A stretch of 64,000 nucleotides of DNA from assembly GCF_036178845.1 (NCBI RefSeq), contig NZ_CP108070.1, forward strand, positions 10,540,001 to 10,604,000. Direction: 5' to 3'. Below are positions 32,675 to 49,345 of this stretch, piece by piece (positions within the stretch are counted from its first letter, which is position 1; the number at the start of each line of letters is the position of its first letter). The notes under the pieces were generated by a model. That model saw only the letters and a list, made by a program, of their open reading frames with translations. It had not been told where the DNA came from and did no database searches. Source of the DNA: Streptomyces sp. NBC_00271. Lineage in GTDB: Bacteria > Actinomycetota > Actinomycetes > Streptomycetales > Streptomycetaceae. The position numbers were made by a program, and so were the translations under genes.

Positions 32675-32947
32675 GCCCAGACGCACGGTCGTGGGGGCAC
32701 CGAAGAGCGGCGTGGATGACGCTGCGCGGCACGGTCTGTTCGGGCGCAGCCGAACTGACATGGCGGCACGACGGCAAGGCCATCGCGATCTGGGACTTCA
32801 GCATCGGCCTCGACTGACATCGCGGCCACCGCAGGGCCGGCTCGTCCCCTCCGCCGGGTCGCCGCCCTGGGGCCGCGGCCCACTCACGTCCAGGCACCCG
32901 GCTTGTCCGGAGACGGCCGCCGCCGAGGACCGCGTGGTCCGGCCGGG

Positions 32948-33726
32948 TCAGCTCAGTGCCTGGACTGCGTAGCGGACGCCGATACCGAGAGGGAATGCCG
33001 AGCAGGAGACGGAGTGCGGTTACGGGCAGCCGGGGCTGGAGGCGGGCGCCGAGGCAGCCGCCCACCAGTCCTCCCAGCCCGTCCGTGAGACCAAGAAGCC
33101 AATGCGGAGCGATGTCGCCCGTGGTGGTCATGGCCAGCACGGCGTAGGCGCCTGCGTCTACAACAGGCGTGACAAAGGTGGAGGCCGGAGCGGCAGGCGC
33201 GACCGCAGCTATCGGCACTCCGGGGCCCACCAGCATCGGGCCGAGCAGGGAGCCGCCGCCGATCCCGTAGATTCCCCCGGTGACCCCGACGGCTGCGGCC
33301 GGCGCGACGGTGGCACGGGACGAGGACTGGGCGGCAGCGGGGTGGATACGGGCCGGGCGCACCGTGCACCAGCACAGCCAGCGGCGACAGCAGAACGCCG
33401 ATGAACAGACGGAACACGCGCGGGCCAGGGACGGCGAACACCCGGATCACCGTGCCCAGGACCACCACCGGCACGGTGCCAGCGATCAGCAGGCGGGCCG
33501 GCGGCCCGCCCAGCCGTCCCGCCTTGTGGCAACGCGGCAGGGCACCGGGGCCGGCAACGACGTTGAACAGCAGGTTCGTCGGAGTCACCGCTGGACTGGG
33601 CACCTCTAGGATGCTGACCTGCACGGGCAGCAGGAACACAGCGCCGGAAACGCCCGCCGGCGCAGTGGCCACCGATTGCAGCAACCCGGCGGTGAAGGCG
33701 AACAGCACGGTCGACCACGTCGCCAC
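32948..33726 (-). pseudogene. TauE/SafE-type permease, frameshifted twice
   Basis: The GTG at 33726 follows GGAGGGA and reads VATWSTVLFAFTAGLLQSVA to RVFRLFIGVLLSPLAVLV. After a shift near 33340 the family sequence resumes (AVGVTGGIYGIGGGSLLGPM, VVDAGAYAVLAMTTTGDIAP), including the GIGGG loop. A second shift near 32990 gives the ending LGIGVRYAVQALS and a stop at 32948. Together the pieces make a complete sulfite/organosulfur exporter-like (TSUP) protein of about 258 residues. The gene is inactive unless the shifts are sequence errors. Confidence 0.8.
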
Positions 33727-33855: not shown

Positions 33856-35481
33856 TCAGGCCTTGTAGGCCACGTTCGCCATCATTCCGGCCTCGCCGTG
33901 GTAGGCGTTGTGGCAGTGCATCATCCACTGGCCCGGGTTGTCGGCGTTGAGGAACACGGACACCGTCTTCTTGGGCAGCACGATCGTGGTGTCCTTGCGC
34001 GGCCCGGAGGTTCCGAGCTGGTACGTGTGGCCGTGCAGGTGCATCGGGTGCCACATCTCGGTCGTGTTGACGAAGTCGAGCCGTACCCGCTGGCCCTCCT
34101 CGATGACGATCGGGTGCGCCTCGGGATTCTTCATGTCGAACGGCGTGCCGTTGATGGCCCAGTTGTACTTCATCATGTTGCCGGTCAGCTTGATCTGGTG
34201 CGTGACGTCGGTCTTCGAGGACTTGAGACGCACATCGTCGGCGGCCCGCAGCTGGGACGCCGTCATGATCATGCCGTCGAGTTCCCGCGGACGGACGGAT
34301 GCCTTGGGTGCGCTTCCGGAGCCTGTGCGCATCAGGGCCAGGCCGTTGGCGTTCTTGCCCTCGGCCAGGGCGGCGAGCGGGAAGACGCCGTCGCCGAGGG
34401 TGACGAGGACGTCGTAGCGTTCGCCCATGCCGACCAGCAGGGCGTCCACTTCCTGGTGCTGGACGGGGAAGCCGTCGGTGTGGGTGATGGTCAGTTTGTG
34501 GCCGCCGAGGGCGACCCGGTAGGCGGTGTCCGAGCCGGCGTTGATGATGCGCAGCCGTACCTTCTTGCCGGGCTTGCCGGTGTAGACATCCGGGTCGGTG
34601 GCCACGCGGCCGTTGATCAGGTGGTGCGGGTATTTCACGTCACCGGCGTCGCCGCCGAGCAGGCTGCTGGTGGCGCCCATGAGCATGAACTTCTTGGACA
34701 TGCCGCCGGAGGAGGCGGAGGCCGAGGCGGAACCGCCCATGTCCATCCCGCCCATGTCACCCATGCTGTCCGAACTGCTGGGGCTCGGGCTGCTGCTCAT
34801 GTCCATGCCGCTCATGTCGGCCATGCCCAGCTTGAGCTCGGAGAAGACCTCGTTGGGGGTGCCGGTGACGCCATCGACCCAATCGTCGAGAAGGACGACC
34901 CACTCGTCGTCGTACGACAGGGGCTCCTTGGGGTCCTCGACGATCAGCGGGGCGTACAGGCCACGGTCGAGCTGGACGCCGACATGGGGGTGGAAGAAGT
35001 ACGTACCCGGGGCGTCGGCGATGAACCTGTAGGTGAAGGTGGATCCGGCCCGGACCGCGGTCTGTGTGGCCGGGGGCACGCCGTCCATGTCGTTGCGCAG
35101 GGCGATGCCGTGCCAGTGGATCGACGTGGCCGTCTTGTTCGGGAGCTGGTTGGACAGCTCGGCTATCAGAGTGTCGCCGACGGAGAGGCGTACCTCCTTG
35201 CCCGGCGTACGGCCGTCGAAGGCCCAGGTCTTGGGCATGACGCCGCCGCCCAGGTCGATCATCGCGGGTGACGCGGTCAGGGTGAGCTTCCGCTGCCGTC
35301 CACTGCTCGTGCGCTTCTTCTCGGCGGCGGCGACCGCCGAGGCGGTCGGGCTGACCAGGGCGTTGCCGCTGCCGCTGCCGGATCCGGTGTTACCGGAGCC
35401 GCCATTGCAGGCGGCGAGGGCGCCGGTTCCGGCGGCTCCGAGCCCGGCGAGCAGGACGGAGCGGCGGTTGATGCTGTTCAT
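33856..35481 (-). CDS. Tat-exported multicopper oxidase
   Basis: The protein is 541 aa. The N-terminus MNSINRRSVLLAGLGAAGTG is a twin-arginine signal, followed by AACN, a possible lipobox. All four copper-ligand clusters are present: IHWHG, FFHPHVG, HPMHLHGH and MMHCHNAYHGEAGM. The middle has a Met/Asp/Ser-rich insert (MSGMDMSSSPSPSS, GDMGGMDMGG) like the copper-buffering loops of CueO-type enzymes. It likely oxidises Cu(I) to Cu(II) outside the membrane. It shares the divergent control region to its right with the DUF6153-like gene in the same direction. Confidence 0.95.
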   Translation of the reverse strand: MNSINRRSVLLAGLGAAGTGALAACNGGSGNTGSGSGSGNALVSPTASAVAAAEKKRTSSGRQRKLTLTASPAMIDLGGGVMPKTWAFDGRTPGKEVRLSVGDTLIAELSNQLPNKTATSIHWHGIALRNDMDGVPPATQTAVRAGSTFTYRFIADAPGTYFFHPHVGVQLDRGLYAPLIVEDPKEPLSYDDEWVVLLDDWVDGVTGTPNEVFSELKLGMADMSGMDMSSSPSPSSSDSMGDMGGMDMGGSASASASSGGMSKKFMLMGATSSLLGGDAGDVKYPHHLINGRVATDPDVYTGKPGKKVRLRIINAGSDTAYRVALGGHKLTITHTDGFPVQHQEVDALLVGMGERYDVLVTLGDGVFPLAALAEGKNANGLALMRTGSGSAPKASVRPRELDGMIMTASQLRAADDVRLKSSKTDVTHQIKLTGNMMKYNWAINGTPFDMKNPEAHPIVIEEGQRVRLDFVNTTEMWHPMHLHGHTYQLGTSGPRKDTTIVLPKKTVSVFLNADNPGQWMMHCHNAYHGEAGMMANVAYKA

Positions 35482-35556
35482 GACGTGGTGTCCTCTGTGT
35501 CGTAACTGCCGATGTGGTCGCGGAGGGACGGCACATCGCGCGCCGTCCGGCGCGGC

Positions 35557-35985
35557 CTAAATGCGCAGTTGAGAGAGGACGGACAGATCGGGCGGAGCTC
35601 TGCTCGCCACGGAGCCCGGTGCGCGTCGGGACAAGGCCCTCAGGAGATCGGCCGAGGCGTCGAACGCGCTCTGCCCCGGTATGGCGAGATGCACGGTGGT
35701 GACGCTCGCCGAGCTGCAGTGCTGCATGCCTGGCGTGGCGCATCCGCCGTCGTTGAGATTGTGTGTGGATGCGTCCGAGACGGACGACGCCGTGCCGTCC
35801 GGCAGCACGTGAGCGTCATGGGCTGCGCCCGGCATGGCCGCGTGGGCCGTGGCCGGCATCGGCGAGTCGGTCATCCCGGATATCTCATGGTGAACGAGCA
35901 CGGCCAGCGCGACGCACAGGGTGAGGAGCACCCCGTACGCCCAGCGAACGGCTGAACCGCCGCTGCGCGCTGTCCGTATCCCCAT
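35557..35985 (-). CDS. Small secreted Met/His-rich protein (DUF6153-like)
   Basis: The protein is 142 aa. The ATG at 35985 has GGAG five bases upstream (AAGGTGGAGCTC), preferred over an ATG eight codons earlier. One membrane/signal helix (WAYGVLLTLCVALAVLV) is followed by a Met/His/Ala-rich segment (MTDSPMPATAHAAMPGAAHD) and GGCATPGMQHCSS. These residues fit a periplasmic-side copper binder. It is the first gene of an operon with the multicopper oxidase, with a CsoR-type box 46 bp upstream of its start. Confidence 0.7.
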   Translation of the reverse strand: MGIRTARSGGSAVRWAYGVLLTLCVALAVLVHHEISGMTDSPMPATAHAAMPGAAHDAHVLPDGTASSVSDASTHNLNDGGCATPGMQHCSSASVTTVHLAIPGQSAFDASADLLRALSRRAPGSVASRAPPDLSVLSQLRI

Positions 35986-36030
35986 GAGCTCCACCTTCAC
36001 CGTGTGCACCGCGAGCCGGAGTCGCTATCT

Positions 36031-36045
36031 TACCCCCCGGGGGTA
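36031..36045. promoter_or_regulatory. CsoR-type copper operator
   Basis: TACCCCC-C-GGGGGTA is a perfect inverted repeat with a one-base centre, upstream of the DUF6153-like / multicopper-oxidase genes on the minus strand. It matches the G/C-tract with flanking TA that CsoR repressors recognise, and it is the same design as the box at 37476. Confidence 0.8.
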
Positions 36046-37475: not shown

Positions 37476-37492
37476 ATACCCCCAGGGGGTAT
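37476..37492. promoter_or_regulatory. CsoR-type copper operator (copZ-copA)
   Basis: ATACCCCC-A-GGGGGTAT is a perfect 8-bp inverted repeat with a one-base centre, about 80 bp upstream of the copZ start. It matches the consensus of CsoR operators controlling copZ-copA operons in actinobacteria. Confidence 0.88.
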
Positions 37493-37573
37493 ATGGTTGG
37501 CATGGCAGGAGGGGACGGGGAACGATGCCGTCCCGGAAAGCTGCACACGTGTCTACACCCTGAGGAAGAAGCC

Positions 37574-37855
37574 ATGACCACCGAGACGAACTCCGGTTCC
37601 TGCGGCTCCGGCGCCGGTGCCACGGTCGACGTCCGCGGCGTCGGCATCACTACCGTCTACCAGGTGTCCGGCATGACCTGCGGCCACTGCGAGAACGCCG
37701 TCTCCCAGGAGATCTCGGCGCTGGACGACGTCACCGCGGTCACCGCCGTCGCCAAGACCGGCGAGGTGACCGTCACATCCACCGCCGCGCTCGACGAAGA
37801 GGCCGTCCGCGCCGCTGTCGACGAGGCCGGCTACGAGCTCGTCGGCCGAGCCTGA
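37574..37855 (+). CDS. copZ: Copper chaperone CopZ-like
   Basis: The protein is 93 aa. The ATG at 37574 follows GAGGAAGAAGCC. The heavy-metal-associated domain has the Cu(I) site MTCGHC with C36 and C39, and a ferredoxin-like fold pattern ending [11 protein letters not shown]. The first about 25 residues are an extra Ser/Gly tail with one Cys. It carries Cu(I) in the cytosol to the N-terminal domain of CopA, whose gene follows by 112 bp. It is controlled by the CsoR box at 37476 (inference). Confidence 0.95.
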
Positions 37856-37967
37856 CGACTCCGTCGGGGCCTCACCCCCCGGCAACGCGAGTTCCCTCCC
37901 AGAGCCGTGGCATACCGCTCCGCTGATACGGACGCCGTACGTCCTGGCTTACCCAGGAGAAACGCCC

Positions 37968-40253
37968 ATGACCAGCACCGCTCCCGAAAAGGCAGTCCCC
38001 GAAACGGCGCCCGCGCCCGCCCACGCGGTCGAACTCTCCATCGGCGGTATGACCTGCGCCTCGTGCGCCGCCCGCATCGAGAAGAAGCTCAACCGCCTGG
38101 ACGGCGTCACTGCGACCGTCAACTTCGCTACCGAGAAGGCGAAGGTCTCGTACCCGGCGGCCGTCGACATCGCCGACCTCATCGCCACCGTCGAGAAGAC
38201 CGGCTACACCGCCGAGGAGCCGCCCCCGCCAGCCTCCACCACCGCCGACGTGCGCGAGGGCGAGGCCGCCCCGTCCGTCGCGGACGGGGAGCCGCTGTCC
38301 CTGCGGCAGCGCCTCTACGTGTCACTCGTGCTCACCGCGCCCGTCGTCCTGATGGCGATGGTGCCGTCCTTGCAGTTCGACAACTGGCAGTGGCTGTCGC
38401 TGACGCTCGCCGCACCGGTCGTGGTCTGGGGCGCCTTCCCCTTCCACAAGGCCGCCTGGACGAACGCCCGGCACGGCGCCGCGACCATGGACACGTTGGT
38501 GTCGATCGGCACGCTCGCCGCGTTCGGCTGGTCGCTGTGGGCACTGTTCTTCGGGCACGCCGGGATGCCGGGCATGCGGCACGCCTTCGAGCTCACCGTC
38601 TCCCGTACGGACGGCTCCTCCTCCATCTACCTGGAGGCCGCTGCCGGGGTGACCGCCTTCATCCTCGCCGGGCGTTACCTGGAGGCGAAGTCCAAGCGCA
38701 AGGCGGGTGCGGCGCTGCGGGCGCTGCTGGAGCTGGGCGCCAAGGACGTCGCGGTGCTGCGGGGCGGCAAGGAAGTACGCCTCCCTGTCGCCGAGTTGAC
38801 TGTCGGTGACCGCTTCGTCGTACGACCCGGCGAGAAGGTCGCGACCGACGGAACCGTCGTCGAGGGCGCCTCGGCGGTCGACGCCTCCATGCTGACCGGC
38901 GAGTCCCTGCCGGTGGACGTGACGGTCGGCGACGCCGTGACCGGGGCGACCGTGAACGCGGGCGGTCGGCTCATCGTCGAGGCGACCCGCGTCGGTTCGG
39001 ACACGCAGCTCGGGCGGATGGCGAGGCTGGTGGAGGACGCCCAGAACGGCAAGGCCGAGGTGCAGCGCCTCGCCGACCGGATCTCGGCCGTCTTTGTTCC
39101 CGTCGTCATCCTCATCGCGTTCGGCACCCTGCTGACCTGGCTGCTTGTGACCGGTGACGTCACTTCTGCGTTCACGGCCGCGGTCGCGGTGCTGATTATC
39201 GCCTGCCCCTGCGCGCTCGGTCTGGCCACGCCGACCGCCCTCATGGTCGGCACGGGCCGGGGCGCCCAGCTCGGCATCCTCATCAAGGGCCCCGAGGTAC
39301 TGGAGTCCACGCACCGTGTCGACGCCGTCGTCCTGGACAAGACCGGAACGGTGACCACGGGCCGGATGCGCATTCAGGACGTCTTCACCGCACCGGGCGT
39401 GGACGAGAACGAACTGCTGAAGCTGGCGGGCGCGTTGGAGCACGCCTCTGAGCACCCCATCGCGCAGGCGATCGCGGCTGGCGCCGTCGAGCGGGCCGGA
39501 AGCCTTCCCGTGCCGGAGAACTTCGAGAACAACGCCGGGCTCGGCGTGCAGGGAGTGGTGGACGGTCACGCTGTGCTCGTCGGCCGCGAGAGGCTCCTCA
39601 AGGAGTGGGTCATCGAGCTGCCCCGGGAGCTGGCCGAGGCCAAGGCCGCAGCGGAGGCCGAGGGGCGTACGGCCGTCGCCGTCGCCTGGGACGGTGAGGC
39701 GCGCGGTGTTCTCACGGTCGCCGACGCGATTAAGGAGACGAGCGCCGAGGCGGTGGCCGATCTGCGCAGGCTCGGTCTTAAGCCCGTCCTGCTGACCGGC
39801 GACAACCAGCTCGTAGCCGAGTCCGTGGGCAGGTCCGTCGGCATTGACGAGGTGATCGCCGAAGTCCTGCCCGAGGACAAGGTGAGCGTGGTCAAGCGGC
39901 TGCAGGACGAGGGCCGTACGGTCGCGATGGTCGGCGACGGCGTCAACGACGCGGCCGCGCTCGCCACCGCCGACCTGGGTCTTGCCATGGGAACCGGCAC
40001 CGACGCGGCCATAGAGGCCGGCGACCTGACCCTCGTACGCGGCGACCTTCGCGTCGCCGCCGACGCGATCCGCCTTTCCCGCAGGACCCTCGCCACCATC
40101 AAGGGCAACCTCTTCTGGGCCTTCGGCTACAACGTCGCAGCCCTGCCGCTGGCCGCCTTCGGGATGCTCAACCCGATGATCGCGGGCGCCGCGATGGCCT
40201 TCTCCTCGGTCTTCGTCGTGACCAACAGCCTGCGACTGCGGTCCTTCAAGTAG
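37968..40253 (+). CDS. copA: Copper-exporting P1B-type ATPase CopA
   Basis: The protein is 761 aa. It has one N-terminal metal-binding domain with MTCASC (C30/C33), eight membrane helices, the Cu(I) translocation motif CPC in [10 protein letters not shown], the phosphorylation site [11 protein letters not shown] in EHASEHPIA, and the hinge [10 protein letters not shown]. These are the hallmarks of the Cu+ ATPase subgroup. It pumps cytosolic Cu(I) outward. It is co-regulated with copZ, and its 3' end faces the cyclodipeptide synthase gene across 73 bp. Confidence 0.96.
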
Positions 40254-40326: not shown

Positions 40327-41082
40327 TCATCGTCGCTGCACGGTATCCGGCACATGGACGCCTGGGCGTTGGATTTCTACGGCGCTGTGCAGATGACAGA
40401 AGCCCTGCTCGGGGGCCGGGTGCAGGGCCAGCCGGTGGTGGTACAGGTCGGCCAGCAGCTGCGGGACCTCGTGGTAGCAGAACACCGAGGCGGCCGCGCC
40501 TGCGATGCGCGGGGTGTCCAGGAACAGCGGCAGTTCGGCCAGGAAGTACCGCACCGCGCCCCGCAGCTGTTCTTGCGTGGGCTGCCGGCCGGGCGGCAGT
40601 CGGCGTTTCAGCACCCAGGCCGAGGCGCTCAGGCACGCCTGGGCAAAGCCGGTGTCCTTGCGGAAGCGGTGCTCCTCATGTGCCGTGAGTTCCTCGTAGG
40701 CGGGGTTCGAGGCGAGCGCCTGGCCGTCGAGGAGGTAGGGGCCGGGGTCGAGTACGCCGTTGTCGGCAAGGGCTTTGGTGATCTTGTTGCGGACGTACTG
40801 GCCCTGGCGGCGGGCCTTCCAGGCGGCCTTCTCCGGCGGATAGCCGAGTGCTTCCAGGGTGTGGGCGGCCGCGGTGTCGGGGACGAAGAAGTGCACGTCC
40901 GTGAAGGTGGACAGCCCCCAGCAGACCAGGTCGGCGATCCGTTGGGCGGAGAAGTGGCTGTTGAACGGGCTGATCCCGAGGCACGCGTGGGCGCGGCCCG
41001 CGAAGGCGGTCCGACATTGGGCGGTGAGCGGCTCTGCGCGGATCAGGTCGACAGGCTCGGTGGACACGGACTCGGAGGGCAT
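40327..41082 (-). CDS. Cyclodipeptide synthase (tRNA-dependent, NYH type)
   Basis: The protein is 251 aa. Residues align with AlbC of Streptomyces noursei at an offset of one: S38 and N41 in LGISPFNSHFS (S37, N40), Y179 and E183 in RYFLAELPLF (Y178, E182), and Y203-H204 in FCYHE (Y202, H203). All catalytic and NYH-subgroup residues are thus present. Family members take two aminoacyl-tRNAs and form a cyclic dipeptide through a Ser-linked intermediate. The start at 41082 has GGAG seven bases upstream. No tailoring oxidase, P450 or methyltransferase gene is adjacent. The product cannot be predicted. Confidence 0.9.
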   Translation of the reverse strand: MPSESVSTEPVDLIRAEPLTAQCRTAFAGRAHACLGISPFNSHFSAQRIADLVCWGLSTFTDVHFFVPDTAAAHTLEALGYPPEKAAWKARRQGQYVRNKITKALADNGVLDPGPYLLDGQALASNPAYEELTAHEEHRFRKDTGFAQACLSASAWVLKRRLPPGRQPTQEQLRGAVRYFLAELPLFLDTPRIAGAAASVFCYHEVPQLLADLYHHRLALHPAPEQGFCHLHSAVEIQRPGVHVPDTVQRR

Positions 41083-41219: not shown

Positions 41220-41621
41220 CTACGTACGGATCACGCACAGCTCATAGGAGCCCTCGGAGCCCAGAGCACGCTCCCAGCCCGGAGAGGCATCGAGCGACAC
41301 CGTCGTGGGCGGGGTCCACAGCGGCAGGTCACGGTCGACGCCAGGCACAGGGGTGCGCGGGGCGGGCTCGGCGCGGGAGGCGGGGCACCGGTCGTGGTCG
41401 GACATGCACGAGTGCTCGCCGGTGGACGACGTGTCCCCGGGGGACGCGACCACCACGGTGGCCTCGGCCGAACGGCCCGCGCACGGCTCCGTCATGGCTG
41501 TTCCGGCAGCGGATCCGACGCCGGAGGCGCAGCCCAGGAGCGCGAGTACCAGCAGCAGTACGCCGACCGCGCGGGGGGCGCCCACGCGTGCACGGTCGCG
41601 GGGGAGACGCTGCTGGCGCAT
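41220..41621 (-). CDS. Small secreted protein, Cys/His-containing
   Basis: The protein is 133 aa from the ATG at 41621. A signal segment (AVGVLLLVLALLGCASGVGS) includes a plausible lipobox (LLGC). The mature part has clustered Cys/His (TGEHSCMSDHDRCPA) and an ending GWERALGSEGSYELCVIRT. The family was not identified with confidence; it resembles the DUF6153-like proteins of this region. It precedes the cyclodipeptide synthase on the same strand by 137 bp and may share its transcript. Confidence 0.55.
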   Translation of the reverse strand: MRQQRLPRDRARVGAPRAVGVLLLVLALLGCASGVGSAAGTAMTEPCAGRSAEATVVVASPGDTSSTGEHSCMSDHDRCPASRAEPAPRTPVPGVDRDLPLWTPPTTVSLDASPGWERALGSEGSYELCVIRT

Positions 41622-41786
41622 GAGGCAGTGATGCACCACTTCGTGGGCCAGGGCCAGCGGCACCGCCGAGAGGTCACCCGGATGGCGGACGGTGCGGCGC
41701 GCGGAAGCGCACAACGTTTCCCCGCCACGGGATGCCGATGCGACTCCGACCCGTGCCGAGGCCCTCCGGCGTCGGCGTTGCGGGGC

Positions 41787-42548
41787 TCACAGCGCCAGCT
41801 GGTAGCCCGCGACCCAGTAGCGCAGCAGCCCGGTCAGATACGTCCACGCGCCACTGACCTGCAGAACGCCGACGACCACCAGCATCGCGCCGCCGAAGCG
41901 CATCACGCCCCGCGCGTTGCGGCGAGCGAAACCGAAGGCACGCAGGGCACGGCGGAAGCCGAGGGCGGCTACGAGGAAGGGCAGGCCCAGGCCGACGCTG
42001 TAGACGAAGGCCAGCAGGGCGCCGCGGCCCGCGCTGCCGGTGTTGAAGGACAGGCTCATCACGGCGGCGAGCGTGGGGCCGATGCACGGGGTCCAGCCGA
42101 GGCCGAACATCACCCCGAGAAGCGGGGCCCCGGCCAGGCCCGCCCGTGGGTGGTAGCTGATGCGGAAGGTACGTCCGGCGAAAGGGATGCGCTCGAAGGC
42201 GCCCAGGAAGAGTAGTCCCAGCAGGATCGTCAGCGCGCCCAGGATCCGAGTGATCAGGTCCTGGTATTCGAACAGCGTGTTGCCGACATAGCCGAGCGCG
42301 GCACCGTAGCTCGCGAAGAGGGCGGAGAAGCCGAGGATGAACAGCGCCGTCCCGGCGACCATCCGACCCCGACTTTCGCGCCCCGCCTGCACGTCGGCCG
42401 CCGACATGCCGGTGGCGTACGAGACGTAGCCGGGCACTAGTGGCAGGCAGCAGGGCGAGAAGAACGAGACCGCGCCCGCGAGGAGCGCGAGTGGCGCCGC
42501 CAACAGCAGCGGGCCGCTGGCGACGAGCTCGGATATGCCTTGACTCAC
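41787..42548 (-). CDS. ccdA: CcdA/DsbD-type cytochrome c biogenesis protein
   Basis: The protein is 253 aa with six membrane helices. The two redox cysteines are placed as in CcdA: FFSPCCLPLVPGY in the first helix and WTPCIGPTLA in the fourth. These transfer reducing power from cytosolic thioredoxin to extracytoplasmic thiols. In a copper region it would help repair or metallate secreted thiol proteins. It diverges from the methyltransferase pseudogene; the spacer has an ACCT-ACTA-AGGT motif at 42618. Confidence 0.93.
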   Translation of the reverse strand: MSQGISELVASGPLLLAAPLALLAGAVSFFSPCCLPLVPGYVSYATGMSAADVQAGRESRGRMVAGTALFILGFSALFASYGAALGYVGNTLFEYQDLITRILGALTILLGLLFLGAFERIPFAGRTFRISYHPRAGLAGAPLLGVMFGLGWTPCIGPTLAAVMSLSFNTGSAGRGALLAFVYSVGLGLPFLVAALGFRRALRAFGFARRNARGVMRFGGAMLVVVGVLQVSGAWTYLTGLLRYWVAGYQLAL

Positions 42549-42613: not shown

Positions 42614-42629
42614 CCTAACCTACTAAGGT
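42614..42629. promoter_or_regulatory. CCTAACCTACTAAGGT motif, candidate operator
   Basis: ACCT-ACTA-AGGT is an inverted repeat with a 4-bp spacer, next to CCTAA (42614). The octamer TACTAAGG is shared with the lipoprotein promoter at 32073. It lies between the divergent ccdA and methyltransferase genes. Confidence 0.45.
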
Positions 42630-42673
42630 GAATCATTGAGGGTGTCCGCTCCGCCATCACCGAGGAGGACATC

Positions 42674-43313
42674 ATGGTCAAAGCGGTGTCTCATCCGTTC
42701 TTCGCCCGCATCTACCCGCGCATCATCGCCTTCACCGAGGCGCACGGCTCGATCGAGCACCGCCAGGAGCTGCTGGCGGGTGTGCACGGTCGGGTGGTCG
42801 AGATCGGAGCCGGGACGGGGGCGAACTTCCGGCACTATCCGCCCGAGGTGACGCAGGTGGTGGCGGTGGAGCCGGAACCGAGACTCCGGGCTCTCGCAGA
42901 TAAAGCCACGACGGAGACGCCCGTGTCGGTGGAGGTGGCGGCGAGCCGGGCGGAGAAGCTGCCGTCGGAGGACGACGGTTTCGACGTGGCGGTGTTCTCA
43001 CTGGTGCTCTGCACCTTCGCGGACGTGCCGGGCGCCCTCGCCCGAGGCGAGGCGGGTGCTGAAACCGGGCGGGAAGCTGCTCTTCTACGAGCATGTGGGC
43101 TCCGAGCGGCCCGGCTTCCGCCGGGTGCAGAAGTCGCTGGCCCTGCCGTGGCGGCTCATCGGTGGCGGCTGCCACCTCACCCATGACACCGAACGCGCCA
43201 TCCAGGAGGCGGGCTTCACCGTCGAGGACATCCGCCGCTTCTACTTCCTGATCAACGGCCGAGCCAACCCCGCATCCCCGTCGATCATCGGTACCGCCCG
43301 CCCGACCACCTAG
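42674..43313 (+). pseudogene. Class I SAM methyltransferase, frameshifted
   Basis: The ATG follows GAGGAGGACATC. The frame reads HGRVVEIGAGTGANFRHYPP (SAM-binding motif I) and DGFDVAVFSLVLCTFADVPG, then leaves the family at 43040. Removing one C there gives ALAEARRVLKPGGKLLFYEH and RRFYFLINGRANPASPSIIG to a stop at 43311-43313. The complete restored protein would be about 213 residues, normal for UbiE/YcgJ-like methyltransferases. The shift is in a GCCCGAGGCGAGGCGGG tract and could be a sequence error. Confidence 0.8.
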
Positions 43314-43358
43314 GCCGCTTAGGATGTCCGGAGAACATTCCGATCGGGGAGGAGGGCC

Positions 43359-43739
43359 ATGACGCAGTTCGGCGAGCTGGAAGCCGCGATCATGGACGCG
43401 GTGTGGTCCGCGGGCAAACCGTTGCGCGTCCGCGAGGTTCTCGAGCGCCTGGACCGGGACCCGGAGCCCGCGTACAACACCGTCCACACCGTCACCGAGA
43501 TCCTCTACCGCAAGGGTTGGCTGGCGAAGGAGAAGGACGGCCGGGCCTACAAGTACGGAGCCACCCAGAGCCGTGAGGAGTACGTCGCCGGGCTGATGGG
43601 GGAGGCGCTGTCCGTGGCCGACGACCGCACCGCGACGCTGGCCCGCTTCGTGCAGCAGATGCAGCCCGGCGAGGCCGAGGAACTGCACCGGCTGCTCGGA
43701 CAGGCCGTGGCCCGGGAAGCGGGGGAGGCGTCCTCGTGA
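43359..43739 (+). CDS. BlaI/MecI-family repressor, copy 2
   Basis: The protein is 126 aa with an ATG after GGGGAGGAGGGCC. The winged helix (FGELEAAIMDAVWSAGKPLR, AYNTVHTVTEILYRKGWLAK) and C-terminal dimer helices (RTATLARFVQQMQPGEAEEL) match the first copy at 30458. It is translationally coupled to a second M56 gene. The upstream sequence CGCTTAGGATGTCCGGAGAACATTCCG contains GTCCGGAGAACATTCCG-like symmetry that may be an operator. Confidence 0.92.
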   Translation: MTQFGELEAAIMDAVWSAGKPLRVREVLERLDRDPEPAYNTVHTVTEILYRKGWLAKEKDGRAYKYGATQSREEYVAGLMGEALSVADDRTATLARFVQQMQPGEAEELHRLLGQAVAREAGEASS

Positions 43740-44713
43740 TCGTCGCCGCCGTCCTCTTCACCTACGCCGTGCTGTTGTGCACTTTGGCGCCCCGGCTGTT
43801 GCGCGGGGCCTGCTGGGCTGAGCGGGCACCCCGGCTGGGCATCGTGGTCTGGCAGGTGCTGGGCGCCTCGGCGCTCACATCCGCCATCTTGGCCGGGCTC
43901 GCGCTGACCGTGCCGACCGTCAGGGTCAGTGCCGATCTCGCGCAGCTGCTCCAGGCGTGCGTGATGGCGCTGACCGCGCAGTACGCCTCGCCGGGCGGCG
44001 CCGCCGCCGGGGCCGCGGGGGCCGTGCTCGCGCTCGCGGTGCTGGGGCGGGTGACCTGGTGTGCGGGCACGGCTCTCCTGCGCATCGGCCGGGAGCGTCG
44101 GGAGCACCGCGAGGTCCTCGACATGGTCGGTCGCGCCGATCCCGTACGCGGTGTCGTCGTCCTCGACCATGAAGAACCCGCCGCTTACTGCCTGCCCGGC
44201 CGCCACCGCCGCACAGTGATCACCACGGGCGCTCTGCACGCCCTGGACGACGAACAGCTCACCGCCGTCCTGGCCCACGAACGCGCCCACCAGGCCGAAC
44301 GCCACGACGCCGTACTGGCCTGGACGCAGGCCCTGGCCCGAGCCTTTCCCCGCGTTCCGCTGTTCCGTACGGCCGAGGCGGAGATCGCGCGGCTGGTGGA
44401 GATGCGAGCCGACGACGTGGCCGCCGCCCGCTCCGGACGGCTGACCACCGCCGCGGCACTGCTCGCGGTCGCGGGCGGCCCGACTCCGGCCGTGGCGCTC
44501 GCCGCCGGCGGTTCCACCGCGGCGCGCCGGGTGCGCCGCCTTATCGAAGCGCACGCCCCGCTGGGCCGCCTGCGCATCGCGGCGGGTTCGCTGACCGCGG
44601 CAGTGGCGCTGGCCGTGCCGCTGCTGATCGTCGGCGGTCCGGCGGCGGCCGCGACGCAGCTCAACTACTGCCCGAACGGCACCCCGGCCGCCCAGGTCAC
44701 CTCCATGCGCTGA
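43736..44713 (+). CDS. M56-family membrane protease/sensor, copy 2
   Basis: The protein is 325 aa with a GTG start overlapping the repressor stop. Membrane segments occur near residues 2-22, 35-60, 90-115 and 283-303. The zinc motif is HERAH (HExxH) in LTAVLAHERAHQAERHD, with VEMRADDVAAA supplying the third ligand region. A short extracytoplasmic C-terminal tail contains one Cys (LNYCPNGTPAA). No penicillin-binding domain is present. It is paralogous to the protein at 30823. Confidence 0.9.
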   Translation: MIVAAVLFTYAVLLCTLAPRLLRGACWAERAPRLGIVVWQVLGASALTSAILAGLALTVPTVRVSADLAQLLQACVMALTAQYASPGGAAAGAAGAVLALAVLGRVTWCAGTALLRIGRERREHREVLDMVGRADPVRGVVVLDHEEPAAYCLPGRHRRTVITTGALHALDDEQLTAVLAHERAHQAERHDAVLAWTQALARAFPRVPLFRTAEAEIARLVEMRADDVAAARSGRLTTAAALLAVAGGPTPAVALAAGGSTAARRVRRLIEAHAPLGRLRIAAGSLTAAVALAVPLLIVGGPAAAATQLNYCPNGTPAAQVTSMR

Positions 44714-44754: not shown

Positions 44755-44769
44755 CCTAATCTCCTTAGG
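44755..44769. promoter_or_regulatory. CCTAA-TCTCC-TTAGG inverted repeat
   Basis: This perfect 5-bp inverted repeat with a 5-bp spacer lies 36 bp upstream of the CcdA-CopC-CopD fusion start and 42 bp after the M56 stop. It shares the CCTAA/TTAGG half-site with the palindrome at 36132 and the motif at 42614. Confidence 0.5.
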
Positions 44770-44804
44770 AGCTCAGGTTTTTGGTTGAGGAGGGTGTCGT
44801 CCGC

Positions 44805-47387
44805 ATGGGAGACCTGCTGTTCGGTACGACGCTGCTGGCGTCGTTCCTCGGCGGCGTGGTGGCTCTGCTCGCGCCCTGCTGTGTGTCGGTGATGCTGCCC
44901 GCGTACCTGGCCACAGGCTTCCGGCGCCGCACCGGGATCCTGGCCGCGACGCTGGTCTTCGCCGCCTGGGTGGCCACGGTGATCGTGCCGATCGGTCTCG
45001 GCGCCACCGCGCTGGTCTCGCTGATCTCCGGCCACCACCTACTGGTGTTCTCCATCGGTGGCGCGGCCATGGCACTCGGCGGGCTCGCACTGCTGGCCGG
45101 GTGGAAGCCGCAGCTGCCGATGATCGCGGGCCGGGCGCCGCACGGGCACGGCTTCGGCTCCGTGTACGGCCTCGGCGTGTTCTCCGGAGCGGCCAGCTCC
45201 TGCTGCGCACCGGTGCTCGCCGGGGTCGCCGTGCTCTCCGGCGCCGCGGCGTCCTTCCCCGCCGCGCTCGCCGTGTCGCTGACGTACGTGGCCGGGATGG
45301 TCGCCCCGCTGTGCCTGCTCGCGCTGGTGTGGGACCGCCGGGACTGGGGTGCCAGTCGACTGTTGCAGGGTCGCCAGGTCACCGTCGGCGTAGGCCGGTT
45401 GCGGCGGCCGCTGGGCAGTGCTGTCTCCGGGACACCGGAGACCCTTGAACCGGTGACCGCACTCGCACCATCCCTCCGACGCCCGGCCGGGGTCCTCCTC
45501 GCCCTGGCCGCGCTCGCCCTGGCCGCGCTCCTGGGTACCGCCACCCCCGCGTCCGCCCACGCCACGCTGCTGTTCACCAGCCCGGCCGCGGACGCCACAG
45601 TCGCCGACTCGCCGAAGTCGCTTGTCCTGGTCTTCGACCAGCCGGTGAGCCTGAGCGGGAGCACCGTACGGCTGCAGCCCACTGCCGGCCTCGGCACGGC
45701 CGCCCTCAGCCAAGGCCGTCGCACCGTCACCGTGCCCGTACGCGGCACGCTGACCGAGGGCGTGCACACCGTCGACTGGACGGTCACCGCCCAGGACGGC
45801 GACATCATGACCGGCAGCTACCGCTTCGCCGTCGGCCCCCGCACCGTCGCCCTCACCTCCGGCCAGACCACCACCGCGAAGGACCGCGTCCCCACCACGA
45901 TCCTGCGCTGGCTCCTGTTTGCCGCACTCGCCCTGCTCCTCGGCGAGCTCACCACGAGCCACCTCGCCGCCCGCGTCCCCGACGCCCCCGTCAGGCGACC
46001 CCGCTCCTGGGCGCTGCCCGCCGCCCTCGTCGGCTGCGCCGCCGCCCTCGGTCTGACGGCGCTGGTGATCGGCGACGGCTCGCTGCGCTCGGTGATCGAC
46101 ACCCGCCCCGGCGTCCTGTCGCTGATCGAGGTGGCCGGCTTCGCCCTCGCAGCCGTTGCCGTTGGCGTACGCCACCGTTCATGGGCGGTCGTCCCGCTGG
46201 CCGCTGTCGTGATCGCCGAGGCACTACGCGCGCACCCGCAGGCCCAACAGGCCGTCGCCGGACCGATGTTGACCTTCATCCACCTCGCGGCTGCCGCCCT
46301 GTGGCTGGGCGCCCTGGTGCAGGTACTGCGCACGACGGCCGACTGGCGCGGCGAGCGGGCCGCCGCACGCGGCCTGCTGTCGGCCTACGCACGGCTGGCC
46401 GCCTGGCTGTTCGCGGCCGTCGTGACGACCGGCGTCATCGCCGCCCTGCTGCTCGTCCCGCTCGGCGACGTCTTCCACACGACATACGGCCAGGTCCTCC
46501 TCGCCAAGATCGCGCTGGTCGCGGGGGCCGCCGCCCTCGCCTACCTCGCGCGCCGCCGCCTGCACTCCGCACCCGGCCGCCTCCCGTACCGTCCCGCCCG
46601 CGTCGAAGCCTCCGCCCTGATCGTCGTCCTCGCCGTGTCGGCCACCCTCACGGTGCTGCGCGCACCCGCCGACGCCAACCGCCCCCTCTCCTTCGCACCC
46701 CCGACCACCGGCCCCGTCGTCCCGGCCGGCACCCGCGCCGGGGAGATCGGCATCAGCGCCCGCGCCAGCACCGGTCAGCTCATCGTCGAGCTGACCGCAC
46801 CCCAGGTCGGCAACCCCGACGACCAGTCGTACGGCCTGTCCGCCACCCTCGCCGACCCGCGCGGCACCCGCCGAGCCCTGAAACTCCGCGGCTGCGGCAC
46901 CGGCTGCTTCTACACCCAGCTCACCTGGCGCGAGGGCACCAGCCACCTCACCCTGACAGCCTCGGCGGGCGAGGAATGGGCGGGCGGCCGGGCGGGCCTG
47001 GCCATCACCTGGCCCGCCCGCCCCGACGCCGCCCTGCTCCGCGAGACGGTCGGCGCGATGAAGAAAGCCCCCCGCTTCACCCTGCACGAACTGGTCACCA
47101 GCAACACCACGCTCGGCCTCGGCGACCTCAAGCAACTCCCCATCACAGGCAAGGAGTTCCTGGCCGCCGAGCCGTACGGCAGCGGCACCGCACCCGTGAT
47201 CACCCGGCTGCCGGACGACAACGGCCACCGCCGTCTCGCCCTTGCCTACCCCGCCGAGCACACCCAGCTCGACCTCACCCTCGACGAGACCGGCCGCATC
47301 CTCCATGAGACCCTGACCGCCCCCAACCACCTGGTCACCCGCACCTTCGTCTACCCGGAGACGGGGGAGGAGGGCCATGAGCACTGA
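44805..47387 (+). CDS. CcdA-CopC-CopD fusion, copper resistance membrane protein
   Basis: The protein is 860 aa; the ATG at 44805 lies nine bases after GAGGAGGG. Residues 1-205 are CcdA-like (LLAPCCVSVMLPAYLATGF, AASSCCAPVLAGVAVLSG) but lack the last helix of the family. A linker then runs into an internal signal-like helix (AGVLLALAALALAALLGTA) ending ASAHA, and a CopC domain (ATLLFTSPAADATVADSPKS). The CopC Cu(II) region reads TAQDGDIMTGSYRF, with Asp where CopC proteins usually have His. CopD-type helices follow from about 365 to 640, then an extracytoplasmic C-terminal domain ending GEEGHEH. A GTG at 45453 would give a normal CopC-CopD start, so the fusion may be an in-frame junction of two genes. 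Confidence 0.85.
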   Translation: MGDLLFGTTLLASFLGGVVALLAPCCVSVMLPAYLATGFRRRTGILAATLVFAAWVATVIVPIGLGATALVSLISGHHLLVFSIGGAAMALGGLALLAGWKPQLPMIAGRAPHGHGFGSVYGLGVFSGAASSCCAPVLAGVAVLSGAAASFPAALAVSLTYVAGMVAPLCLLALVWDRRDWGASRLLQGRQVTVGVGRLRRPLGSAVSGTPETLEPVTALAPSLRRPAGVLLALAALALAALLGTATPASAHATLLFTSPAADATVADSPKSLVLVFDQPVSLSGSTVRLQPTAGLGTAALSQGRRTVTVPVRGTLTEGVHTVDWTVTAQDGDIMTGSYRFAVGPRTVALTSGQTTTAKDRVPTTILRWLLFAALALLLGELTTSHLAARVPDAPVRRPRSWALPAALVGCAAALGLTALVIGDGSLRSVIDTRPGVLSLIEVAGFALAAVAVGVRHRSWAVVPLAAVVIAEALRAHPQAQQAVAGPMLTFIHLAAAALWLGALVQVLRTTADWRGERAAARGLLSAYARLAAWLFAAVVTTGVIAALLLVPLGDVFHTTYGQVLLAKIALVAGAAALAYLARRRLHSAPGRLPYRPARVEASALIVVLAVSATLTVLRAPADANRPLSFAPPTTGPVVPAGTRAGEIGISARASTGQLIVELTAPQVGNPDDQSYGLSATLADPRGTRRALKLRGCGTGCFYTQLTWREGTSHLTLTASAGEEWAGGRAGLAITWPARPDAALLRETVGAMKKAPRFTLHELVTSNTTLGLGDLKQLPITGKEFLAAEPYGSGTAPVITRLPDDNGHRRLALAYPAEHTQLDLTLDETGRILHETLTAPNHLVTRTFVYPETGEEGHEH

Positions 47388-47441
47388 GCACCCGGGCCCG
47401 ATCGAAAGCGCGTTCACAAGTACCGCTTAACATTCAGCGTG

Positions 47442-47885
47442 ATGAGCAGCCGGACGCAGCACACGGCCCGCGGCGCGTGGCGGACCACGCACATCGCGGC
47501 GCTCTGTCCTGCCCTGGCCGTACTGCTCGCGGCTCTGGTGATATGCCTGGGGCCCGCGGCACACGCCGCCAGCGGCGACCGGGCCACTTCCACGACCGCT
47601 GCCATGACCGGCGTTTTCCACGCGCAGATGCAGACAGGCAGTCCGGCCGAGCACCACACAATGCCGGTCGCGCACCCGGGTGGCTGTCCCGCCGGAGACG
47701 TGTGCTGCTCACCCGCCGTCCACGGTGCGGCAGCGGTGCTCGCCGCACCCGTGCACCCCCTGCCGGTGCTTCTGCCCCGCATGCCGAGCCTCCCCAGGCG
47801 GGAGGCCGGTCCCACGCTCCTCGCCAAGCCTCCGCCGGCTGACAGTGCTCCCGATCTCCACGTCCTCCAGGTGCAGCGGACCTAG
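47442..47885 (+). CDS. Small secreted Cys/His-rich protein
   Basis: The protein is 147 aa (GTG one codon earlier also possible; no ribosome binding site seen). It has a membrane/signal helix (LCPALAVLLAALVICLGPAA), then Met/His/Cys residues (FHAQMQTGSPAEHHTMPVAH, CPAGDVCCSPAVHG) and a proline-rich tail. Composition and location resemble the other DUF6153-like proteins at 35557 and 41220. A role in extracytoplasmic copper binding is an inference from context. Confidence 0.6.
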   Translation: MSSRTQHTARGAWRTTHIAALCPALAVLLAALVICLGPAAHAASGDRATSTTAAMTGVFHAQMQTGSPAEHHTMPVAHPGGCPAGDVCCSPAVHGAAAVLAAPVHPLPVLLPRMPSLPRREAGPTLLAKPPPADSAPDLHVLQVQRT

Positions 47886-47999
47886 ACGGATGGCATGGCG
47901 CTGTGGCGCTCACGCGTGCCCATGCGCCGAACGACATCCGTCCACCCCCTGCACCCACCGCCGCCGACGACACCGCGGCGGGGACAAGGACACCCAGGC

Positions 48000-48656
48000 A
48001 TGCCCAACACGAGCAAGAAGCAGGCCGCCGCCGACCGCAAGGCCCGCATAGAGGCGATGCGCCGTGCCGAAAAGGCCCGCGAGCGCCGCAACCGCATCAT
48101 CACCATCACGCTCAGTACGGTCATCGTCGCCGGACTCGCCGGCTGGGGCGCGTACGCCATCAACAACGCCAACGAGAAGAACGACCAGAAGGCCGCCGCC
48201 GCGGCGAAGCCGATAAGCGGCGAGAAGACTTGGGATGCGAAGAAGCTCACGCGCAACCACGTCCAGACCAAGGTCGACTACCCGATGAACCCACCCGTAG
48301 GCGGCAACCACGCTCCGGTGTGGATGACCTGCAACGGCGACGTCTACACCAAGGCCATCGCGAACGAGAACGCCGTCCACTCCCTCGAACACGGCGCGGT
48401 CTGGGTCACGTACAACGACAAGGCCAGCGCGGCCGACATCAAGACCCTCGCAGGCAAGGTCTCCAAGACCCCCTACACGCTGATGAGCCCGGACAAGACC
48501 GAGTCCGGGACGATCATGCTGTCGGCCTGGGGCCACCAGCTCAGTGTGAACACAGCCTCCGATCCGCGAGTCGAGCAGTTCCTCACCAAGTACGTCCAGG
48601 GCGCGCAGACCCCCGAACCGGGTGCCGCCTGCACGAACGGACTGACCGCCTCATGA
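48000..48656 (+). CDS. DUF3105 family membrane-anchored protein
   Basis: The protein is 218 aa from the ATG at 48000 (AAGGA nine bases upstream). A basic, coiled-coil-like N-terminus (KKQAAADRKARIEAMRRAEK) precedes one membrane helix (IITITLSTVIVAGLAGWGAY). The external domain has the DUF3105 signature: NHVQTKVDYPMNPPVGGNHA and VHSLEHGAVWVTY, with several His that could bind metal. The gene overlaps the next start (ATGA). DUF3105/DUF305 pairs occur in actinobacterial copper and metal regions; function is unproven. Confidence 0.92.
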   Translation: MPNTSKKQAAADRKARIEAMRRAEKARERRNRIITITLSTVIVAGLAGWGAYAINNANEKNDQKAAAAAKPISGEKTWDAKKLTRNHVQTKVDYPMNPPVGGNHAPVWMTCNGDVYTKAIANENAVHSLEHGAVWVTYNDKASAADIKTLAGKVSKTPYTLMSPDKTESGTIMLSAWGHQLSVNTASDPRVEQFLTKYVQGAQTPEPGAACTNGLTAS

Positions 48657-49345
48657 CGGGCCTGACCGCCACCGCACCGGACGAGACCGACCTGGGCGAC
48701 GTACCCGACCGCAAGCCCGCTCTCACCCGCTGGCTGGTCATCGGTGCGGCGGCCCTGGTCGCCATCGTCCTGGCCCTCTCGTTGCTCGCCGTGACCGACA
48801 ACGGCAACAACAAGTCAGCCGCCGTCCCCACGGCCGACTCCGCCGACGCCGGCTTCGCCCGCGACATGGCCGTCCACCACCAGCAGGCCGTCGAGATGGC
48901 CTACATCGTCCGCGACCGCACCACCGACGAGGACGTCCGCCGCCTCGCGTACGACATCGCCCAGACCCAGGCCAACCAGCGTGGCATGCTGCTCGGCTGG
49001 CTCTCCCTGTGGAACCTGCCCGTGACATCTCCCGACGGCTATATGACCTGGATGCCCATGGGCCACATGAGCCACCAGATGAAGGACGGCTCCCTCATGC
49101 CGGGCATGGCCACCAACACCGAGTTGAACCAACTCGGCAAGCTCAACGGCAAACAGGCGGAGATCCTCTACCTCCAGCTCATGTACGACCACCACATGGG
49201 CGGCATCGACATGGCCCGAACCTGCGCCCAGCAGTGCGCGGTTCCCCAGGAGAAGAAGCTCGCCCAGGGCATGGTCGACGCCCAGCAGTCGGAGATGAAG
49301 GTCATGGCCGACCTGCTGCGGGAACGCGGATCTGCACCGCGCTGA
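48653..49345 (+). CDS. DUF305 family protein
   Basis: The protein is 230 aa, co-translated with DUF3105. One membrane helix (WLVIGAAALVAIVLALSLLA) precedes the external four-helix, ferritin-like DUF305 domain with DMAVHHQQAVEMAYIV and LMYDHHMGGIDMARTCAQQC, paired His/Met motifs typical of the family. Met-rich segments (YMTWMPMGHMSHQMKDGSLM) suggest copper binding. It is likely a periplasmic-side copper sequestration protein. Confidence 0.93.
   Translation: MTGLTATAPDETDLGDVPDRKPALTRWLVIGAAALVAIVLALSLLAVTDNGNNKSAAVPTADSADAGFARDMAVHHQQAVEMAYIVRDRTTDEDVRRLAYDIAQTQANQRGMLLGWLSLWNLPVTSPDGYMTWMPMGHMSHQMKDGSLMPGMATNTELNQLGKLNGKQAEILYLQLMYDHHMGGIDMARTCAQQCAVPQEKKLAQGMVDAQQSEMKVMADLLRERGSAPR

What the first reader, a model, noticed from the sequence alone, without database searches (positions are those of the whole stretch)
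40327..41082. Complete cyclodipeptide synthase embedded in a copper-resistance cluster without tailoring genes
All residues that define the active site of AlbC-type enzymes are present. Cyclodipeptide synthases usually sit with oxidases, P450s or methyltransferases, but this one stands between copA and ccdA with a small Cys/His lipoprotein-like gene upstream. A copper-binding or copper-induced diketopiperazine, used for metal handling or signalling, would be a new link.
Basis: partly seen in the sequence, partly recalled or inferred. Interest (0 to 1): 0.7.

Follow-up and report, generated by a model that had tools for sequence, protein, structure and literature searches.

The report
Cyclodipeptide synthase of copper-resistance operons
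A Streptomyces enzyme that builds tiny ring-shaped dipeptides from charged tRNAs belongs to a subfamily whose genes sit again and again inside copper-resistance gene clusters, sometimes right behind a metal-switch-type promoter, which suggests an apparently unreported small molecule, perhaps cysteine-based, in bacterial copper handling.

Summary
The gene is real: window 40327-41082 (-) encodes an intact NYH-type cyclodipeptide synthase (CDPS). The neighbourhood is not a one-off: of 41 loci of its superclade, 25 have copper or BlaI/M56 markers within 8 kb (18 an explicit Cu-ATPase, HMA or CopC/D gene); of 41 other CDPS loci none has, one weak P-ATPase match aside. Several gene orders occur, on chromosomes, four Streptomyces megaplasmids and in a second family (3 loci, 2 genomes). 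In one clade (16 loci) the CDPS directly follows a MerR-type promoter; in 12 of these copA is next. 13 of the other 16 superclade loci share a thiol-redox operon. The pockets of the window enzyme and the second-family enzymes match best a characterised cysteine-using CDPS; for the MerR clade and the thiol-operon clade the match is ambiguous or leans to proline. Best reading: a copper-stress CDPS making a probably cysteine-containing diketopiperazine that binds or buffers Cu(I). The genomic link is strong; product, copper binding and induction are untested, and copper clusters without an intact CDPS exist. No paper listed in the searches showed this link in title or abstract start.

The parts
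40327..41082 (-). Cyclodipeptide synthase (CDPS), NYH subfamily; pocket P1 C-G-F-P-G-L-F-F, P2 A-W-V-R-E-P-Q
41220..41714 (-). Small Cys/His-containing membrane- or lipoprotein-like ORF ending ELCVIRT (likely start ATG at 41621, inferred); small ORFs with the same kind of ending lie directly upstream of CDPS in L045, L046, L047, L096, L097
   Evidence: no Pfam family
41787..42548 (-). CcdA (DsbD_TM), upstream of the small ORF and CDPS on the same strand
   Evidence: 92% identical to CcdA of plasmid pFRL6
37968..40253 (+). CopA, Cu-type P1B ATPase with HMA domain, tail to tail with CDPS
   Evidence: TIGR01511 527.5 bits, cut-off 397
37493..37855 (+). HMA-domain (copper chaperone-like) protein
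37476..37492 (.). Perfect palindrome ATACCCCCAGGGGGTAT, CsoR-like box (family assignment recalled) before the HMA-copA genes
42614..42628 (.). CCTAA-N5-TTAGG-type box (1 mismatch) between ccdA and the methyltransferase gene; candidate BlaI/CopY-like operator for ccdA-small ORF-CDPS (inferred)
43309..43323 (.). Same box (1 mismatch) upstream of blaI
44755..44769 (.). Same box (exact) upstream of ccdA-copCD
42635..43310 (+). Class I SAM methyltransferase gene, split over two frames relative to the plasmid homologue
43359..43739 (+). BlaI/MecI/CopY-family repressor
   Evidence: PF03965; 91% to pFRL6
43736..44713 (+). M56/M48-like membrane peptidase (Pfam M48; 91% to a protein annotated M56 in pFRL6)
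44781..47387 (+). CcdA N-terminal part fused in frame to CopC-CopD
47439..49339 (+). Small ORF, DUF3105 (Pfam) and DUF305 (by 79% identity to the pFRL6 gene) of the same cluster
33856..36009 (-). Multicopper oxidase (33856-35481) and DUF6153 protein (35557-36009)

Best explanation
This is an active-site-complete CDPS of a subfamily that has become an accessory of bacterial copper-resistance operons. SHOWN: the enzyme is intact, its superclade carries the pocket signature C-G-[FY]-P-x-x-F-F, relatives evolve under purifying selection and are repeatedly placed in copper clusters in different gene orders, in one clade directly behind a MerR-type promoter with copA next. INFERRED: under copper or related metal stress the enzyme takes two aminoacyl-tRNAs, at least one probably Cys-tRNA, and releases a cyclodipeptide such as cyclo(Cys-Cys) or cyclo(Cys-X). 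The small thiol(s) bind Cu(I), or keep copper and thiols in a harmless redox state, until CopA and the CcdA/CopC/D/thioredoxin-like parts export it or use it. No tailoring enzyme would be needed because the thiols of the unmodified ring are the ligands. In the window it probably works in a ccdA-small ORF-CDPS transcript controlled by the BlaI/M56 pair.
For: Conservation: copper or BlaI/M56 markers within 8 kb in 25 of 41 superclade loci against 0 of 41 other CDPS loci; 18 of the 25 have an explicit Cu-ATPase, HMA or CopC/D gene. Gene orders: merR<->CDPS-copA (20-bp gap in plasmid pFRL6), CDPS/merR/HMA-copA, CDPS-BlaI-M56(-CopC), BlaI-M56-CDPS (L138), and the window order. Promoter: 16 of 16 clade-A loci have CTTG...TAnCGTCC...ATG directly upstream; 11 match the strict dyad pattern and L098 has one mismatch. 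Module swap: CcdA, BlaI, M56 and DUF3105 of the window are 91-92% identical to pFRL6, yet CDPS is about 53% and CopA 64% identical, so different copA+CDPS modules occupy the same slot. Selection: omega 0.16-0.52 in 10 pairs. Cysteine: the pockets of the window, L041 (by one point), L096, L102, L103 and L138 score best against the only Cys row of Table 2 of PMC5816076; L102, L103, L138 have P1 CGYPS[LFM]FF, that row VGYPSIFF. Sister loci encode rhodanese, thioredoxin and a thioredoxin-reductase-like protein beside the CDPS.
Against: No product, copper binding or induction was measured. By P1+P2 score clade A (L003, L042, L052) favours Pro rows, and the sister loci L054 and L099 and the superclade member L101 also put a Pro row first (30 vs 29, 35 vs 29, 34 vs 31 for Cys). 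The consensus of the published cCC group is a figure and could not be read, so membership is untested. The clade-A MerR tested scores below every NCBIfam metal-specific cut-off, and all 16 clade-A MerRs have a Cys in GE[SQ]PC, which, as recalled, marks divalent-metal rather than Cu(I) sensors. Relatives of the window backbone lack an intact CDPS (L140 keeps a 59-residue fragment; none in 20 kb of L141 and L142), so the cluster does not need it. 7 of the 25 loci have no explicit Cu-ATPase, HMA or CopC/D gene within 8 kb, only BlaI/M56 with or without CcdA, Grx, Prx or DUF305/3105 genes. A methyltransferase family recurs in 7 of 24 copper loci, so an unmodified product is not certain. Contexts of the nearest homologues (78-95% identity) were not seen. 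Low support at several deep nodes.
Confidence: 0.45

Rival explanations
1. The CDPS is a copper-cluster gene, but its product acts outside the cell: a metal-induced signal, antimicrobial or copper-scavenging diketopiperazine whose amino acids need not include Cys.
For: Clade-A pockets resemble Pro/Leu-using enzymes; CDPS products were recovered from E. coli culture supernatants in PMC5816076 (section 10); CDPS is absent from related copper clusters; TauE/SafE-family membrane proteins lie near the CDPS in 11 loci and a methyltransferase family in 7 of 24.
Against: The most constant partners of the copper-type CDPS are copA, merR, BlaI and M56; no P450- or CDO-type partner was seen among the window ORFs scanned.
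Confidence: 0.26
2. The CDPS serves thiol or sulphur redox homeostasis during metal stress (a small dithiol/disulphide couple or a sink for excess Cys) and copper binding is incidental.
For: The sister clade has a conserved CDPS-permease-rhodanese-thioredoxin-protease operon, mostly with a thioredoxin-reductase-like gene, in 13 loci; CcdA, glutaredoxin and peroxiredoxin genes accompany several copper-type loci.
Against: In the copper clades the closest partner is the copper ATPase or BlaI/M56; permease, rhodanese, Trx and protease of the sister operon are in 0 of 24 copper-type loci and its TrxR in 2 of 24.
Confidence: 0.13
3. Hitch-hiker: the CDPS rides on mobile metal-resistance islands and plasmids without a role in metal handling.
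For: Found on megaplasmids; remnants exist (L063 with internal stops; 59-residue fragment in L140); rare (7 of 392 Streptomyces genomes have the copper type).
Against: Three groups with different gene orders, place directly behind a MerR-type promoter, purifying selection, swap of copA+CDPS modules in one slot, also in a second family.
Confidence: 0.12

Closest known systems
Cyclodipeptide synthases, NYH subfamily (AlbC, Rv2275, YvmC; PF16715, TIGR04539)
   Same: Fold, six active-site residues, length
   Different: Place in copper operons with no P450- or CDO-type neighbour found; pocket signature C-G-[FY]-P-x-x-F-F
CDPS 102 of Algicola sagamiensis (cCG 72.8%, cCC 27.2%) and the cCX/cCC specificity group (PMC5816076)
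   Same: Best pocket match of the window and of L096, L102, L103, L138
   Different: Val instead of Cys at position 33; 'copper' and 'metal' do not occur in that paper's main text; group consensus could not be compared
Pulcherriminic acid pathway (YvmC, cyclo(Leu-Leu), iron binding; recalled)
   Same: A CDPS product that ends as a metal ligand
   Different: Needs a P450 (CypX, recalled) and concerns iron; here copper genes and no P450 found
CueR/CsoR/CopY-regulated cop operons (recalled)
   Same: merR-type promoter with dyad, copA, CopZ-like HMA protein, BlaI/CopY family regulator
   Different: A CDPS is inserted as first or adjacent gene

Membership tests
Cyclodipeptide synthase (PF16715 / TIGR04539) | Full-length family match above curated cut-off | tested here: met
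   240.1 bits vs 27; 257.8 vs 45
Cyclodipeptide synthase (PF16715 / TIGR04539) | Catalytic Ser37, Tyr178, Glu182, Tyr202 (AlbC numbering) | tested here: met
Cyclodipeptide synthase (PF16715 / TIGR04539) | CDPS fold | tested here: met
   model pLDDT 91.0; top matches 3oqh, 7azu, 6ztu, 2x9q
Cyclodipeptide synthase (PF16715 / TIGR04539) | Makes a cyclodipeptide from aminoacyl-tRNAs | not testable with these tools
   needs expression and LC-MS
NYH subfamily | Asn40, Tyr202, His203 | tested here: met
cYY group (Rv2275-like) | P1 VG[VI]TMLFN with Asn at position 200 | tested here: not met
   Phe at 200; NCBIfam cyclodityrosine synthase NF052540 135.7 bits, cut-off 300
cCX/cCC specificity group | Published P1/P2 consensus | tested here: inconclusive
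   Best match to the one readable member, CDPS 102 (40 vs next 26 for the window); clade A, sister clade and L101 ambiguous or nearer to Pro rows; consensus logo not readable
Classical CDPS biosynthetic cluster | Adjacent CDO, P450 or other tailoring enzyme | tested here: not met
   Among 17 ORFs scanned no CDO- or P450-type gene; only a split methyltransferase gene on the other strand
Copper-resistance cluster | Cu-type P1B ATPase, HMA chaperone, copper-type regulator | tested here: met
   the regulator is of the BlaI/CopY family, its ligand untested
CueR-type (Cu(I) MerR) control | CueR-like regulator and long-spacer dyad promoter | tested here: inconclusive
   Dyad promoter present in clade A, not found at the window CDPS; MerR metal not assignable

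The most novel reading that the evidence does not exclude
Actinobacteria possess a tRNA-dependent, metal-inducible small-molecule copper ligand: a cysteine-containing, unmodified cyclodipeptide such as cyclo(Cys-Cys), made as the first product of a copper-efflux operon, in effect a two-residue metallothionein assembled without ribosome or NRPS; the sister clade would use the same ring in a thiol-redox pathway.
Probability: 0.36. Interest if true: 0.87.

Novelty: new variant of a known kind. Interest (0 to 1): 0.7.

Why it matters
It gives CDPSs a possible physiological role in metal stress rather than in antibiotic-like pathways, and adds a candidate small molecule to bacterial copper handling. 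In clade A a metal-switch-type promoter sits directly before the CDPS, so induction and product can be tested with one reporter and one LC-MS run.

Tried and rejected
Rejected: (1) chance or frame artefact. (2) cYY-type (mycocyclosin-like) enzyme: no Asn200, although one source names relatives 'cyclo(L-tyrosyl-L-tyrosyl) synthase'. (3) cPP-type: only L062 has that pocket; it was left out of the superclade count. (4) A MerR-type promoter or CCTAA-N5-TTAGG box in the gap upstream of the window CDPS: none found. The box motif was derived from these same clusters, so its enrichment (12 in the window against 3.4 expected; 72 in 511,305 bases of copper loci against 34 in 707,168 of others) is partly circular.

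Led nowhere: the published cCC consensus (only a logo); metal identity of the MerR; mention of the CDPS in the S. mirabilis P16B-1 metal paper (term search, none).

Some stretches are short or cut by contig ends (L002, L009, L049, L056, L058, L064, L082). Random 20-kb stretches: 2 of 12 held one marker. The tree has only cYY-type enzymes as outgroup; L118-L139 are not in it. The Fisher value ignores relatedness and is not used. Pocket positions 4 and 5 of P1 were read at AlbC 67 and 119, because only so do the cYY-type loci give the published letters; the paper's text calls position 119 the fourth, a disagreement I could not settle. The cYY-type and cPP-type loci used to check the scoring are themselves uncharacterised; they show that clear assignments are possible, not that they are right.

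Full report
WHAT IS THERE. The window lies at 10.54-10.60 Mb of an 11.93-Mb contig. The ORF at 40327-41082 (-) is an intact CDPS: PF16715 at E 3.1e-71, TIGR04539 at 257.8 bits, closest solved sequence Rv2275 (2x9q, E 3.5e-29), AlphaFold2 model with pLDDT 91.0 whose PDB matches at ranks 1-49 are CDPSs. S37, N40, Y178, E182, Y202 and H203 (AlbC numbering) are present, so it is of the NYH subfamily. One CDPS match was found in its genome.

SURROUNDINGS. From about 30.4 to 49.4 kb the window is a copper island: BlaI and M56-like pair (30458-31746), multicopper oxidase (33856-35481), DUF6153 protein (35557-36009), L,D-transpeptidase-domain protein (36170-37384), HMA protein and Cu-type P-ATPase (37493-40253), CDPS, a small Cys/His ORF, CcdA, a split methyltransferase gene, BlaI, M56/M48-like peptidase, a CcdA-CopC-CopD fusion, DUF3105 and a DUF305-like gene. 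17 ORFs were scanned with Pfam, not every ORF (e.g. 32637-33362 was not). The palindrome ATACCCCCAGGGGGTAT, CsoR-like by recollection, precedes HMA-copA. CCTAA-N5-TTAGG-type boxes stand between ccdA and the methyltransferase gene, upstream of blaI and upstream of ccdA-copCD. The CDPS has none in its 137-bp upstream gap, so control by read-through from ccdA is an inference.

IS THE NEIGHBOURHOOD CONSERVED? Yes. Homologues on four Streptomyces megaplasmids, 52-64% identical, lie in annotated metal clusters: in pFRL6, S. liliifuscus and S. mirabilis P16B-1 pI the order is merR (divergent), CDPS, heavy-metal P-ATPase with a 20-bp gap; in NBC_00637 it is CDPS-BlaI-M56-CopC. I fetched stretches, mostly 20 kb, around CDPS genes and searched them by tblastn with marker proteins (E 1e-10). 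Markers lie within 8 kb in 25 of 41 superclade loci: 24 of 39 (L062 taken out), plus L138 with and L139 without. 18 of the 25 have an explicit Cu-ATPase, HMA or CopC/D gene; 7 (L045, L046, L047, L063, L102, L103, L138) have BlaI/M56, some with CcdA, glutaredoxin, peroxiredoxin, DUF305 or DUF3105 genes. Of 41 other CDPS loci (21 of the cYY type; 20 more at 30-41% identity to the pFRL6 enzyme) none was counted; L132 has one P-ATPase match at 27% identity. Random 20-kb stretches gave a single marker in 2 of 12. Many loci are related, so the counts are not independent. The tree of 60 CDPSs shows three copper-associated groups inside the superclade: clade A (16 loci, support 0.99), the window clade B (5 loci, 0.99; L063 not in the tree) and the pair L102/L103, two copies in one genome of another family of the class; L138, from a second genome of that family, adds a BlaI-M56-CDPS order. 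Several deeper supports are low (0.12-0.68).

REGULATION. In clade A all 16 loci have CTTG...TAnCGTCC...ATG immediately before the CDPS; 11 match the strict dyad pattern around CTTGACCTTGCCCTAAGGGCAAGGT, L098 has one mismatch, and L002, L003, L006, L009 have weaker versions. The ATG lies six bases after the -10-like TAnCGT in the printed matches, so the transcript is probably leaderless and the CDPS the first gene served by a metal-type promoter (inference). In 12 of the 16 merR is divergent and copA follows CDPS directly; in the other four merR and an HMA gene lie between. The pFRL6 MerR scores highest with CueR (96.8 bits, cut-off 147.4) but nearly the same with CadR/PbrR (94.2, cut-off 151.45), so its metal is open.

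A SWAPPED MODULE. CcdA, BlaI, M56 and DUF3105 of the window are 91-92% identical to those of pFRL6 (CopC/D 85, DUF305 79, split methyltransferase 71%), but CopA is 64% and CDPS about 53% identical, in a different order. Different copA+CDPS modules thus occupy the same slot. Against this, L140 has the window-type copA (89%) and backbone with only a 59-residue CDPS remnant of the other type, and L141 and L142 have the backbone with no CDPS in 20 kb. Of 14 M56 places in 392 Streptomyces genomes, 5 are beside a superclade CDPS, one of these a remnant. The CDPS is an accessory, not a core part. The copper type occurs in 7 of 392 Streptomyces genomes.

THE SISTER CLADE. 12 of the 16 loci without copper markers and not of cYY type (L062 included in the 16) share another operon: divergent LysR, CDPS, cytosine/purine-type permease, rhodanese, secreted thioredoxin, subtilase, and in 11 a thioredoxin-reductase-like protein; L139 has permease, rhodanese, thioredoxin and subtilase in that order, with the reductase-like gene on the other side. 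None of the 21 cYY loci has any of these; of 24 copper loci two have the reductase. Three superclade loci have neither set (L096, L097, L101); L096 and L097 have a small ORF with the same kind of C-terminus as the window's small gene directly upstream of CDPS, as do L045-L047.

WHAT IT MAKES. Pocket positions follow PMC5816076 (abstract, sections 10-13 and part 1 of section 15 read). P1 of the window is CGFPGLFF, P2 AWVREPQ. Scored by BLOSUM62 against the 32 motifs of Table 2, the best is the enzyme that makes cyclo(Cys-Gly) and cyclo(Cys-Cys): 40 against 26 for the next. L096 (42 vs 24), L102 (40 vs 30), L103 (40 vs 28) and L138 (39 vs 30) give the same; L041 is nearly tied (34 vs 33). Clade A (Trp at the fifth position), L101 and the sister loci L054 and L099 put a Pro row first, the last two and L101 by 1-6 points, although by P1 alone L101, L054 and L099 are nearest to the Cys row. 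Loci with cYY-like and cPP-like pockets are assigned to those rows by wide margins, but their products are unknown. Cysteine in P1 is the best guess for the window enzyme, at about 0.55. PMC7487605 (one passage) says CDOs hardly convert cCC, which would fit the lack of such genes.

MECHANISM. Shown: intact enzyme, selection (omega 0.16-0.52 in 10 pairs), recurrent copper context, MerR-type promoter in clade A. Inferred: copper stress turns on the operon; the CDPS turns aminoacyl-tRNAs into a small ring with one or two thiols; these bind Cu(I) or protect thiol redox until efflux. Thiols as Cu(I) ligands are general knowledge, not tested here. A methyltransferase family recurs near 7 of 24 copper-type loci, so a modified product remains possible.

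LITERATURE. In the held PMC library: 'cyclodipeptide synthase' with 'P-type ATPase' 0 papers; with 'copper' 29 (25 listed), 'heavy metal' 20 (19 listed), 'MerR' 15 (10 listed); diketopiperazine + copper + chalkophore 2; a six-term search 27 (12 listed). None of the listed titles and abstract starts is about this link; of these papers only a few were looked into, by term search or by the sections named above. The study of S. mirabilis P16B-1 plasmid metal genes (PMC9195940) has no word beginning cyclodipeptide or diketopiperazine in its main text. Subscription papers are not covered, so novelty is provisional.

Noticed in passing
L051, L053-L061, L099, L100, L139 (around the CDPS): Conserved operon CDPS - cytosine/purine-type permease - rhodanese - secreted thioredoxin - subtilase, mostly with a thioredoxin-reductase-like gene and a divergent LysR; looks like a thiol-based diketopiperazine pathway in its own right.
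   Followed up: partly
window 44781-47387: CcdA (first 211 of 322 residues of the pFRL6 homologue) runs in frame into CopC-CopD; the peroxiredoxin and glutaredoxin genes that lie between them in pFRL6 were not found.
   Followed up: partly
window 42635-43310: Class I methyltransferase gene of the copper cluster is split over two frames here; homologues of 31-34% or more identity recur in other copper-type loci.
   Followed up: partly
window 36031-36045 and 37476-37492: Two CsoR-like GGGGG/CCCCC palindromes, one before HMA-copA and one between the DUF6153 and L,D-transpeptidase-domain genes.
   Followed up: no
window 30458-31746 and 43359-44713: Two BlaI-M56 pairs in one copper island.
   Followed up: no
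L063 (G090) and L140 (G212): CDPS remnants beside BlaI-M56 or CcdA-copA genes: one copy with internal stops, one 59-residue fragment.
   Followed up: partly
window 17176-18369: ORF whose start resembles transposon OrfB/TnpB proteins (by recollection; no family search made).
   Followed up: no
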